Source: an uncultured Lachnospiraceae bacterium (lineage in GTDB: Bacteria; Bacillota; Clostridia; Lachnospirales; Lachnospiraceae). From it: a stretch of DNA of 64,000 nucleotides. Numbering within the stretch: position 1 is the stretch's first letter; each line of letters starts with the position of its first letter. Below are positions 39,205-43,301 of the stretch, piece after piece. The notes under the pieces were generated by a model. It was not told where the DNA came from, did not search any database, and was given only the letters and a program-made list of their open reading frames with translations. Position numbers and translations under genes: made by a program. The stretch spans positions 1 to 64,000 of the forward strand of contig CALWPY010000005.1 in NCBI GenBank assembly GCA_944383545.1, read 5' to 3'.

Positions 39205-39293
39205 TGATATAATGAGCCTTGCGGCGATGTGCGCTTGCGGACATCGGCATAAGGCGAAAAAACATCGAGACGTCAGTCGAGATGATATAATAA
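39205..39293 (+). repeat. Two-hairpin element, copy A, bounded by -10-like direct repeats
   Basis: Terminal direct repeats TGATATAATGA (39205-39215) and TGATATAATAA (39283-39293) are extended -10 boxes. Between them lie hairpin 1 (39216-39255: GCCTT/AAGGC below, GGCGATGT/ACATCGGC above, loop GCGCTTGCGG), an A-run, and hairpin 2 (39263-39284: CATC-GA-GAC-GTCA-GTC-GA-GATG). Copy B at 43211-43301 has the same plan with paired base changes. It lies about 30 bases upstream of the orphan peptide gene and in the same direction, so it carries or rebuilds that gene's promoter. Confidence 0.75.
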
Positions 39294-39323
39294 GCCAAGC
39301 GGCTGAATAGAGGGAGTGATTAT

Positions 39324-39554
39324 ATGCCAGACTTAAACGACTTAAACGACTCAAACAACACTGAAACCGAAATCGATTTCAAGGATATCATGAATGTAAT
39401 GCAGATACTGGATGATTTTGCTGATTCCGAAACCGGCAGATTAAAACTAAAAGTTGCAAAGGACCCTAATGCAAAGACCGAAACAGTATATCATCATGGA
39501 AGATGTGATGTAGGAAGTCCATGGGCAAATGGAACTCCATTTGACTGCAACTAG
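39324..39554 (+). CDS. Orphan 76-residue RiPP-precursor-like peptide
   Basis: The gene has a good AGGGAG ribosome site, an upstream element with extended -10 boxes and a strong terminator, so it is very likely real. The peptide has an acidic N-terminal half (MPDLNDLNDSNNTETEIDFK, then DIMNVMQILDDFADSETGRL) with a helix that resembles RiPP leaders, and a Gly/Pro/Trp-containing C-terminus with two cysteines (C61 and C75 in HHGRCDVGSPWANGTPFDCN). There is no signal peptide. The layout fits a leader-core precursor or a small regulatory peptide. No radical SAM, lanthionine synthetase, YcaO or protease gene lies nearby, so a maturation enzyme would be elsewhere. The family was not recognised. Confidence 0.7.
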   Translation: MPDLNDLNDSNNTETEIDFKDIMNVMQILDDFADSETGRLKLKVAKDPNAKTETVYHHGRCDVGSPWANGTPFDCN

Positions 39555-39585
39555 TACATCATCCGTCAAATAACAGCAAGATACA

Positions 39586-39636
39586 AAAATACCGGTACAG
39601 TAAAATTTGTTTTCCTGTACCGGTATTTTATTATTT
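39586..39636 (+). terminator. Terminator of the orphan peptide gene
   Basis: A 15-bp perfect stem, AAAATACCGGTACAG (39586-39600) with CTGTACCGGTATTTT (39615-39629), then ATTATTTTTT. It can also serve ftsH, which converges from the right. Confidence 0.9.
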
Positions 39637-41846: not shown

Positions 41847-41938
41847 AGCTTCCTCCTGTTTTACAATTTACCCGTCGGTATATGATAACCATATAATAAT
41901 AATGTAATAGCCTATGAAGATAAATTTCCTATGACATT

Positions 41939-43174
41939 TTATGCATATAAAGGATATTTATCAGTAATAGCCTTTACAAGCTTCATTGCTGTTTCATTAT
42001 CCTTATCAATAACAGCTGCTTTAATTGCATCTGCAATGGAATACATATCTTCTTTTACTGCGCCTCTTGTAGTTATCGCAGGTGTTCCAAGTCTTATACC
42101 GCTTGTAACAAAAGGTGACTTCGGGTCATTTGGAACTGTGTTTTTATTTGCCGTAATATGTACGGAATCAAGTAATTTTTCAACCTCTTTTCCTGTAAGT
42201 CCAAGATTCTGAAGGTCTACCAGCATAAGGTGATTGTCAGTTCCTCCTGATACTATATTAAATCCTCTCTCAATAAGAGACTGTGCAAGAGTTGCCGCAT
42301 TATCCACAACTCTATCCATATATTCCTTATATTCAGGAGAAAGAGCCTCTTTAAAACATACTGCCTTAGCTGCTATTACATGCATGAGAGGACCTCCCTG
42401 GATTCCAGGAAATACAGCCTTATTGAAATTGTATTTTTCATTTACTTCATTGCTTGAAAGAATGAGTCCGCCTCTAGGACCTCTTAAAGTCTTATGAGTT
42501 GTTGTAGTTGTTACATGTGCGTAAGGTATAGGGCTCATGTGATTTCCTGTTGCTACAAGTCCTGCGATATGAGCCATATCTACCATGAGAACTGCTCCAA
42601 CCTCATCAGCTATTTCACGGAACTTCTTAAAATCTATTGCTCTTGCATAAGCAGATGCGCCTGCAACTATCATCTTTGGCTTACATTCTTTTGCAATTCT
42701 TAAGACCTCATCATAATCTATAAATCCGTCGTCATTAACGCCGTAAGGAACTACATTAAAATATTTACCGGACATATTAACAGGACTTCCATGTGTAAGA
42801 TGTCCTCCATGTGCAAGATTCATTCCCATAAAGGTATCACCCGGCTCCATAATTGCAAAAAATACAGCCATGTTTGCCTGAGCACCTGAATGAGGCTGAA
42901 CATTTGCGTATTCACATCCGAAAAGCTCCTTTGCACGTTCTCTGGCAAGGTCTTCAACCACATCTACGTACTCACAGCCACCGTAATATCTCTTTCCCGG
43001 ATATCCTTCAGCATACTTATTAGTAAGAGGGCTTCCCATTGCCGCCATAACTGCTTTTGAAACAATATTTTCTGAAGCTATAAGTTCTATATTGTCATTC
43101 TGTCTGCTTATTTCATCAGACATTGCCTTTGCTACTTCCGGGTCGATATTCGTAATCTCGTCAAAACTGTACAT
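41939..43174 (-). CDS. glyA: Serine hydroxymethyltransferase
   Basis: The 411-residue PLP enzyme interconverts serine and glycine with tetrahydrofolate, feeding one-carbon metabolism. Motifs: IELIASENIVSKAVMAAMGS, NKYAEGYPGKRYYGGCEYVD, VQPHSGAQANMAVFFA, DMAHIAGLVATG and HVTTTTTHKTLRGPRGG (PLP lysine in THKTLRGPRGG), ending SGIRLGTPAITTRG. All are intact. Its promoter region holds copy B of the two-hairpin element, which duplicates the -10 box. Confidence 0.97.
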   Translation of the reverse strand: MYSFDEITNIDPEVAKAMSDEISRQNDNIELIASENIVSKAVMAAMGSPLTNKYAEGYPGKRYYGGCEYVDVVEDLARERAKELFGCEYANVQPHSGAQANMAVFFAIMEPGDTFMGMNLAHGGHLTHGSPVNMSGKYFNVVPYGVNDDGFIDYDEVLRIAKECKPKMIVAGASAYARAIDFKKFREIADEVGAVLMVDMAHIAGLVATGNHMSPIPYAHVTTTTTHKTLRGPRGGLILSSNEVNEKYNFNKAVFPGIQGGPLMHVIAAKAVCFKEALSPEYKEYMDRVVDNAATLAQSLIERGFNIVSGGTDNHLMLVDLQNLGLTGKEVEKLLDSVHITANKNTVPNDPKSPFVTSGIRLGTPAITTRGAVKEDMYSIADAIKAAVIDKDNETAMKLVKAITDKYPLYA

Positions 43175-43210
43175 CTGTTTACCTCCGTTAAATATATTAA
43201 ATCAACGCGT

Positions 43211-43301
43211 TCATTATACCATGTCGCCTGTCGGCTCCATGTGTTTTTCGCATTATGCCGGATTCCGCAAGAGCAATCCGGCGCAATGCTCATTATACCA
43301 T
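43211..43301 (-). repeat. Two-hairpin element, copy B, inserted at the glyA promoter
   Basis: Read on the minus strand: direct repeats ATGGTATAATGA at both ends (43301-43290 and 43222-43211); hairpin 1 (43289-43250: GCATT/AATGC below, GCCGGATT/AATCCGGC above, loop GCTCTTGCGG); GAAAAACA; hairpin 2 (CATG-GA-GCC-GACA-GGC-GA-CATG). The outer -10 box has a near-consensus -35, TGGACA, 17 bases upstream, so it is probably the native glyA promoter; the inner copy lies 37 bases from the glyA start. Plan and loops match copy A at 39205-39293 while stem bases differ in a compensated way. Confidence 0.75.

What the first reader, a model, noticed from the sequence alone, without database searches (positions are those of the whole stretch)
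39205..43301. A two-copy, two-hairpin element that sits in promoters and duplicates the -10 box
Copy A (39205-39293, plus) and copy B (43301-43211, minus) share direct-repeat borders made of an extended -10 (TGATATAAT in A, TGGTATAAT in B), hairpin 1 with a conserved ten-base loop GC(G/T)CTTGCGG, an A-rich linker starting GCGAAAAA, and hairpin 2 with symmetric GA/GA internal loop and G-N-C-A tip. The stems differ in compensated fashion (GCCTT/AAGGC versus GCATT/AATGC; CATC/GATG versus CATG/CATG; GAC/GTC versus GCC/GGC). Borders are identical within each copy but differ between copies, as for target-site duplications. Both lie 30-40 bases ahead of a start codon and point toward the gene. It may be a MITE that targets -10 boxes, or a structured cis-regulatory RNA.
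Basis: partly seen in the sequence, partly recalled or inferred. Interest (0 to 1): 0.8.

Follow-up and report, generated by a model that had tools for sequence, protein, structure and literature searches.

The report
Hairpin element splitting bacterial promoter cores
A family of roughly 73-letter, two-hairpin DNA elements sits mostly in predicted promoters of Lachnospiraceae bacteria with a copy of the promoter's core signal on each side; it likely spreads by inserting into that signal while rebuilding it, and would thus spare the gene it lands beside.

Summary
The host genome has 17 strong hits; 31 of 392 genomes of the order have a hit (13 with 50 bits or more). A border-blind scan of named genomes gave 111 stretches, 62 titled Lachnospiraceae. 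Sequences diverge while both hairpins are kept: 14 of 20 pairs show changes on both sides (0 of 500 shuffles). Rfam has no match. The element runs from AATGAGC to the foot of hairpin 2 (72-73 bp). Its flanks share TGNNAN: over 94 copies, left and right agree at the variable positions far beyond shuffles. Left flanks are enriched in -35-like boxes; right flanks are not. Two empty sites were found: an mgtC promoter with one TGATATAAT, and a gltD gene that carries the element in frame in one genome only. I read it as a small non-autonomous mobile element that likely inserts between TGNTAT and AAT of an extended -10 box: target duplication restores the right box, the element's own AAT the left. 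It is not a strict MITE (no terminal inverted repeats). Of 16 carriers tested, 8 lack Y1 transposase and 6 lack reverse transcriptase, so the mobilising enzyme is unknown. Other hairpin cassettes share the borders and form mixed arrays.

The parts
39205..39210 (+). Copy A, left shared border TGATAT (5' part of an extended -10 box)
   Evidence: border statistics
39211..39282 (+). Copy A, element proper (72 bp, AATGAGC...CGAGA); its AAT completes the left -10 TATAAT (39208-39213)
   Evidence: model hit 93.6 bits
39216..39255 (+). Copy A hairpin 1, CUUG tip
39263..39284 (+). Copy A hairpin 2 with GA/GA internal loop; its last two bases TG belong to the right border
39283..39288 (+). Copy A, right shared border TGATAT; with the following AAT the right -10 TATAAT is 39286-39291
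39292..39305 (+). AAGCCAAGCGGCTG, likely a 3'-truncated second unit (resembles the start of the inner domain of the M3 cassette)
   Evidence: by eye
39324..39554 (+). Downstream 76-aa ORF, start codon 32 nt after the right -10; no Pfam or NCBIfam match
43315..43320 (-). Copy B, upstream -35-like box TGGACA (5 of 6), 17 nt before the left -10
   Evidence: sequence
43295..43300 (-). Copy B, left shared border TGGTAT
43222..43294 (-). Copy B, element proper (73 bp, AATGAGC...GGCGACA)
   Evidence: model hit 92.0 bits
43250..43289 (-). Copy B hairpin 1
43220..43241 (-). Copy B hairpin 2
43216..43221 (-). Copy B, right shared border TGGTAT; right -10 TATAAT 43218-43213
41939..43174 (-). glyA (serine hydroxymethyltransferase), start codon 38 nt after the right -10

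Best explanation
This is a family of 72-73 bp two-hairpin repeats, flanked on both sides by TGNNAN, that likely spread as non-autonomous mobile elements by inserting between TGNTAT and AAT of predicted extended -10 promoter boxes. Inferred mechanism: an unidentified enzyme acting in trans recognises TGNNAN|AAT-like sites and the folded element, cuts the target with a stagger and leaves a duplication of about 6 bp (TGNNAN; the TG may instead be shared by target and element end). The duplication restores TGNTATAAT on the gene side, and the AAT at the element's own 5' end restores it on the upstream side. Transcription would then start mainly at the upstream box, which keeps the native -35, and carry two hairpins in the 5' leader, while the downstream extended -10 keeps its native distance to the gene. 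Shown here: copy number, borders, conserved folding, two empty sites, and -35-like boxes enriched on the left only. Inferred: that it moves, the cut positions, and the promoter-sparing effect. Unknown: the enzyme.
For: Borders: of 115 units found, 94 were used (21 dropped, listed). Left/right agreement at positions 3, 4, 6: 89, 91, 82 of 94 against 56, 68, 46 expected, each 0 of 10,000 shuffles; for the 61 non-tandem units 57, 58, 50 against 33, 44, 31. Shuffling only within genomes (36 non-tandem units, 12 genomes): 33, 34, 27 against 23.8, 28.5, 21.7, p <1e-4, 0.005, 0.03. Empty sites: G052 has TGATATAAT-element-TGATATAAT before mgtC, its congener G293 has one TGATATAAT in the same uppP-mgtC spacer; gltD of one MAG carries 78 bp in frame that a relative lacks. 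Promoters: left border -35 with 5-6 of 6 matches in 10 of 89 against 1.5% of shuffles, right border never above 2 of 6. A sense ORF starts within 250 nt downstream of 83 of 104, against 33 of 98 upstream antisense and 224 of 520 random places.
Against: No enzyme: Y1_Tnp is absent from 8 of 16 carriers, RVT_1 from 6 of 16. IS110 passes its cut-off in 6 of 16 (14 of 16 at E 0.001, but most of the weak ones lie in ORFs of about 1,400 aa). None of 39 loci of these families has an element hit better than E 0.13; these were all 21 Y1 matches but only 12 of 22 RVT_1 and 6 of 25 IS110 matches. No movement was observed. TG on the right is fixed by the search patterns, AAT on the left by the regular expression; the relaxed anchors ease only the second. 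Part of the left/right agreement could be selection for -10 boxes, though positions 3 and 4 include variants such as TGAA, TGCT, TGTT. Position 5 covaries only weakly (86 of 94 against 82.5; p 0.006, and 0.11 in non-tandem units). The gltD copy has borders that differ at position 4 (TGAAAA/TGAGAA). Some copies lie outside evident promoters (L018, L061, L098, L318). Only two empty sites were found; another attempt (81 genomes) gave none.
Confidence: 0.8

Rival explanations
1. Cassette system: the -10 box is the attachment site of a site-specific recombinase, perhaps a host enzyme, that integrates many different hairpin cassettes, integron-like. The identical borders then reflect a required match of overlap sequences, not a target duplication.
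For: Other cassette types share the TGNTATAAT borders and form mixed arrays; tandem units share one border; no transposase found.
Against: Near-identical elements in one genome carry different borders (TGAAAT, TGGTAT, TGATAT, TGGTAA in G000), which a strict overlap rule would not easily give; no recombinase or free circle seen, and integrase families were not searched.
Confidence: 0.3
2. Structured cis-regulatory RNA (leader element) selected for the regulation of the downstream genes, with borders kept by promoter selection.
For: Strong covariation; one wobble pair kept as G-U in 69 of 75 and GU 30 against AC 18 odd pairs elsewhere; sense orientation before genes; one copy conserved at the same place in several genera.
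Against: Unrelated downstream genes, patchy presence (31 of 392), positions beyond gene ends and in frame inside gltD, tandem arrays; the conserved copy lies beside integrase genes in L098, so it may simply travel. No Rfam family.
Confidence: 0.12
3. Classical MITE or IS200/IS605-REP type element moved by a resident DDE or Y1 transposase.
For: Small, non-autonomous, multi-copy, folded, flanked by short repeats.
Against: No terminal inverted repeats (8 and 7 matches, shuffled mean 7.3 and 7.2); Y1_Tnp absent from copy-rich genomes such as G000, G002, G331, G391; Y1 insertion makes no target duplication (recalled). DDE families were not searched.
Confidence: 0.12
4. The element is copied through an RNA form and inserted by target-primed reverse transcription (a bacterial SINE-like element).
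For: Matching borders without inverted repeats, sense-strand structure, and one reverse transcriptase in the own genome.
Against: RVT_1 absent from six of 16 carriers, among them G331, G014 and G320 at 99% completeness or more; a transcript from the left -10 would lack the first bases (inference); truncated units next to intact ones lack the 3' end, not the 5' end.
Confidence: 0.1

Closest known systems
Pneumococcal BOX, RUP and SPRITE repeats (PMC3049150, passages read)
   Same: Small, folded, interspersed repeats, BOX being modular, thought to be parasitic, that may alter expression of co-transcribed genes
   Different: BOX and RUP have terminal inverted repeats paired in the fold; the word TATAAT does not occur in the paper's main text. 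Here no inverted repeats, and the insertion point is the -10 box
Rickettsia palindromic elements and CGTC repeats (PMC3733652, passages read)
   Same: Short palindromic repeats without a known dedicated transposase; Rickettsia repeats also enter coding sequence without disrupting genes (passage in PMC3049150)
   Different: CGTC repeats were reported in five other phyla and have a CGTC tag; here two hairpins, TGNNAN borders, promoter targeting, Lachnospirales
REP/REPIN elements with RAYT transposases (PMC2817692, PMC3116915: listing and abstract only)
   Same: Hairpin-based non-autonomous repeats
   Different: GTAG tag and IS200-type tyrosine transposase (passages); Y1_Tnp is missing from 8 of 16 carriers tested
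Correia elements of Neisseria (passages in PMC10969869)
   Same: Repeats near genes that contribute promoter sequences
   Different: Correia elements carry a promoter sequence on the element; here an existing -10 box is split and doubled

Membership tests
MITE | terminal inverted repeats | tested here: not met
   copies A and B have no more inverted matches than shuffled ends
MITE | target site duplication | tested here: met
   (inferred from border statistics and two empty sites; the gltD borders differ at one position)
MITE | related autonomous insertion sequence with the same ends | tested here: inconclusive
   none found in 80 of the 111 loci scanned for unpaired ends nor at 39 enzyme loci; not an exhaustive search
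REP/REPIN (RAYT-mobilised) | IS200-type Y1 transposase in the genome, flanked by the repeat | tested here: not met
   absent in 8 of 16 carriers; no flanking copies at the 21 Y1 loci
IS110-type RNA-guided elements | IS110 transposase in carriers, flanked by the element | tested here: not met
   over cut-off in 6 of 16; no flanking copies at 6 loci examined
Pneumococcal BOX | boxA/boxB/boxC modules | not tested
   no sequence comparison with BOX was made; anatomy differs by the passages
Known Rfam RNA family | covariance-model match | tested here: not met
   (window region and nine loci)
Integron-like cassette array | cassettes of different sequence with one shared recombination core, in arrays | tested here: inconclusive
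   different cassettes with the same borders, in arrays, are seen, but the cassettes were compared only by eye, and the shared core may be the target alone
Integron-like cassette array | adjacent integrase gene and attachment site | not tested
   no integrase family search was run

The most novel reading that the evidence does not exclude
The extended -10 promoter box serves as the attachment site of an undescribed recombination system in Lachnospirales that loads many kinds of two-hairpin cassettes into promoters, always at the upstream, active box, so that genes accumulate arrays of promoter-bounded RNA leaders that grow from upstream and decay downstream.
Probability: 0.35. Interest if true: 0.88.

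Novelty: new variant of a known kind. Interest (0 to 1): 0.72.

Why it matters
An element that splits the -10 box and rebuilds it on both sides would have a promoter-sparing way to live in an expressed part of a genome, comparable in logic to self-splicing elements in genes. It would also explain doubled -10 boxes and long folded leaders in Lachnospiraceae, point to a -10-directed insertion activity to look for, and warn promoter and transcription-start predictors. The structure-keeping divergence makes the fold itself a testable requirement for movement or for harmlessness.

Tried and rejected
Rejected: chance similarity (27 loop matches against 3 for the reversed pattern; only 9 of the 27 are elements, the rest look like coding sequence and one tRNA gene by eye). 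Rejected: known riboswitch. No sign of a phage- or plasmid-borne repeat (two patterns in viral contigs 0 hits; blastn of copy B none in plasmids and phages). Rejected as resident movers: Y1_Tnp, RVT_1, IS110. Looked for longer versions with an ORF between the hairpins in 80 of the 111 loci: none. The first idea that the whole TGNTATAAT is a 9-bp duplication was dropped when sites without TATAAT (L023, L061, L018) showed AAT on the left only. An empty-site search at a methyltransferase gene (81 genomes) failed because flanks are not syntenic. The weaker hits in G348, G382, G398, G408 and G389 (about 28-42 bits) have other borders and follow terminator-like sequences by eye; they may be a different family, so 31 of 392 is an upper count for elements of exactly this type, and 13 of 392 (50 bits or more) the safer one. 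Paper searches for a description of such an element showed none in their listings; they cover open-licence PMC papers only.

Full report
OBSERVATION. Copies A and B are present as described. Each is a 72-73 bp segment starting AATGAGC and ending at the foot of a second hairpin, flanked left and right by TGATAT (A) or TGGTAT (B). Each -10 box TATAAT is therefore present twice. RNA folding gives the two hairpins at -32.1 and -36.2 kcal/mol, z -4.7 and -5.2, 0 of 200 shuffles as low. For glyA a -35-like box TGGACA lies 17 nt before the left -10.

COPY NUMBER AND RANGE. The pattern GCNCTTGCGG occurs 27 times in the own genome against 3 for the reversed pattern; by eye 9 of the 27 sites are copies of the element. 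A covariance model from 14 own copies finds 23 hits in the own genome: 17 at 75 bits or more, three weaker, and three on the opposite strand of a strong hit. It finds hits in 8 of 61 genomes, own included. A second model from 28 copies finds hits in 31 of 392 genomes of the order, own included, 22 of 174 genera; 13 of the 31 have a hit of 50 bits or more. In 391 genomes of the class (E 1e-4) it finds hits in 2, the own genome and G052 of the same order. Searches over more than 40 genomes use stricter filters that lose weak matches. By my count of the titles 62 say Lachnospiraceae; five name other groups (Planotetraspora, two Gammaproteobacteria, Chloroflexi, Dechloromonas), of which four were scored and only one reached E 0.01, at 22 bits; the rest bear other Clostridia names, among them Coprococcus catus, Roseburia hominis, Suipraeoptans intestinalis and Clostridium fessum. 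Of the 80 loci scored with the model, 66 have a hit of 50 bits or more; the other 31 loci were not scored with it.

STRUCTURE. Across 28 copies from eight genomes 97.3% of pair cells are standard pairs (77.1% shuffled), 14 of 20 pairs have changes on both sides, covariation score 0.553 against 0.194, 0 of 500 shuffles; sliding the partner by 1-3 columns destroys it. On 80 distinct copies from the genome scan: 96.8% paired, 365 double changes against 121.8, 0 of 500. The count of pairs with a change on both sides (14) was reached by 85 of 500 shuffles there, and that alignment was fitted to the model. One wobble pair is kept as G-U in 69 of 75; at the other pairs GU outnumbers AC 30 to 18, which mildly favours the promoter-sense strand as the folded one. 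No Rfam family matches the window region or nine loci.

BORDERS. A script found 115 units in the loci held then. Twenty-one were dropped as listed (12 labelled M1b subtype, one of them spurious; eight with TG not at offset 9; one orthologue), leaving 94. Left and right agree at position 3 in 89, position 4 in 91 and position 6 in 82 of 94, against 56, 68 and 46 expected, 0 of 10,000 shuffles each; position 5 agrees in 86 against 82.5 (p 0.006). In the 61 units not followed by another unit start: 57, 58, 50 against 33, 44, 31, and position 5 not significant. Within-genome shuffles (36 non-tandem units in 12 genomes) still give p <1e-4, 0.005 and 0.03. The AAT before GAGC is near-constant on the left, while on the right it is native and varies; fixes it by its search expression, but with relaxed anchors AAT precedes the element in 88 of 130 rows, some of them mis-anchored. 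Sites without TATAAT show this best: L023 TGAAAT/AAT.. against TGAAAT/GAT.., L061 TGGT on both sides then ATAAT against CAAAT. In the 61 non-tandem units the right-hand hexamer is TATAAT in 29.

EMPTY SITES. In G052 the element lies between uppP and mgtC (families). In G293, same genus, flanks about 90% identical, the same spacer has GTATGATATAATGGG with one box. G319, also of the genus, lacks the element and has TGATATACT; G286, matched on the mgtC side only, has GGTATGATTAT (the loci of G278 and G330 were not read at this place). In the MAG contig JAFUGT010000128 an uninterrupted glutamate-synthase small-subunit reading frame (TIGR01317, 442.9 bits, just under its cut-off of 447.7) holds 78 extra bp, i.e. 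26 codons: an element of 72 bp plus 6 bp. A relative lacks them and is otherwise of equal length there; the two borders differ at position 4, TGAAAA against TGAGAA. Insertion is thus not strictly confined to promoters.

PROMOTER CONTEXT. Of 89 outer left borders, 10 have 5-6 of 6 matches to TTGACA at 16-18 nt, against 1.5% of shuffles; no right border exceeds 2 of 6. An ORF with a ribosome-site-like sequence starts within 250 nt downstream of 83 of 104 units, against 33 of 98 on the opposite side and 224 of 520 random places. So the left box tends to keep a native -35, and the right box keeps the native distance to the gene.

ARRAYS AND OTHER CASSETTES. Thirty-three of the 94 right borders are followed by another unit start: 10 with a full unit and 23 with a truncated unit, another cassette or a chance match; by eye 11 of the 23 are 3'-truncated units of this family. 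A 5'-truncated unit directly upstream was seen for 0 of 91. Intact units upstream and decayed ones downstream suggest that insertion keeps hitting the active upstream box. Copy A itself is followed by AAGCCAAGCGGCTG, likely such a remnant. Other cassette types use the same kind of border: M2 and M3 in the own genome, M4 (L080), and M5-M7 in other genera. M4 shares its second hairpin with M2, and M3 holds a hairpin like hairpin 1; otherwise they look unrelated by eye. In the own genome 13 stretches match TATAATG-N58..88-TGRTATAAT against 1 for the reversed pattern. Arrays mix types, e.g. M1-M2-M4 before ispF, and a shortened M3 followed by M2 before uvrB (gene names by eye).

MOVER. Of 16 carrier genomes, 8 lack Y1_Tnp and 6 lack RVT_1. 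IS110 passes its cut-off in 6; 14 have a match at E 0.001, the weak ones mostly inside ORFs of about 1,400 aa. No element hit better than E 0.13 was found at 39 loci of these families, namely all 21 Y1 matches, 12 of 22 RVT_1 and 6 of 25 IS110 matches, with about 1.5 kb on each side where the contig allows. Ends show no inverted repeat. The enzyme is unknown; integrase, resolvase and DDE families were not searched.

LITERATURE. Passages of PMC3049150 (BOX, RUP, SPRITE), PMC3733652 (GTAG and CGTC repeats) and PMC10969869 (MITE review) were read; REP/REPIN papers only as listings with abstracts. None of the listings shows an element that splits and rebuilds a -10 box.

VERDICT. A real family of small structure-conserving elements at promoter cores that I could not match to a described one. 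Mobility and the promoter-sparing insertion are well supported inferences; the enzyme and any effect on expression are open.

Noticed in passing
L041, L042, L071 (M2); L038, L044, L046-L048 (M3); L080 (M4); L157 (M5); L129, L309 (M6); L245, L300 (M7): Other two-hairpin cassettes bounded by TGNTATAAT-type boxes; M4 shares a hairpin with M2, M3 contains an inner hairpin resembling hairpin 1 of the element, the others look unrelated by eye.
   Followed up: partly
L098, L099, L127, L128 (also L264, L286): The same copy at the same place in several genera, after a reading frame with a methionyl-tRNA synthetase C-terminal domain; in L098 integrase-like genes lie on both sides (one confirmed as Phage_integrase, the other by eye). 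It may travel with an integrative element.
   Followed up: partly
L140, L142, L149, L174-L176, L181, L183: Weakly similar hairpin repeats (about 29-42 bits) with GCGATA..TATCGC-like ends that sit just after intrinsic-terminator-like sequences (by eye) in three genomes (G348, G382, G398).
   Followed up: no
G000 contigs C2 start, C19 start, C12 end, C5 end: Four contig ends are cut inside a unit (three of this family, one M2), which hints at longer arrays that broke the assembly.
   Followed up: no
window 39324-39554: 76-aa ORF behind copy A with a C-terminal HHGRCDVGSPWANGTPFDCN stretch and no family match; could be a peptide precursor.
   Followed up: partly
window 44051-44761 and 44809-45519: Two adjacent, closely similar 236-aa ORFs on the minus strand, likely a tandem duplication.
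   Followed up: no
L318 1-1122: Glutamate-synthase small-subunit reading frame with a 26-codon in-frame insertion that is the element; the frame stays open.
   Followed up: yes
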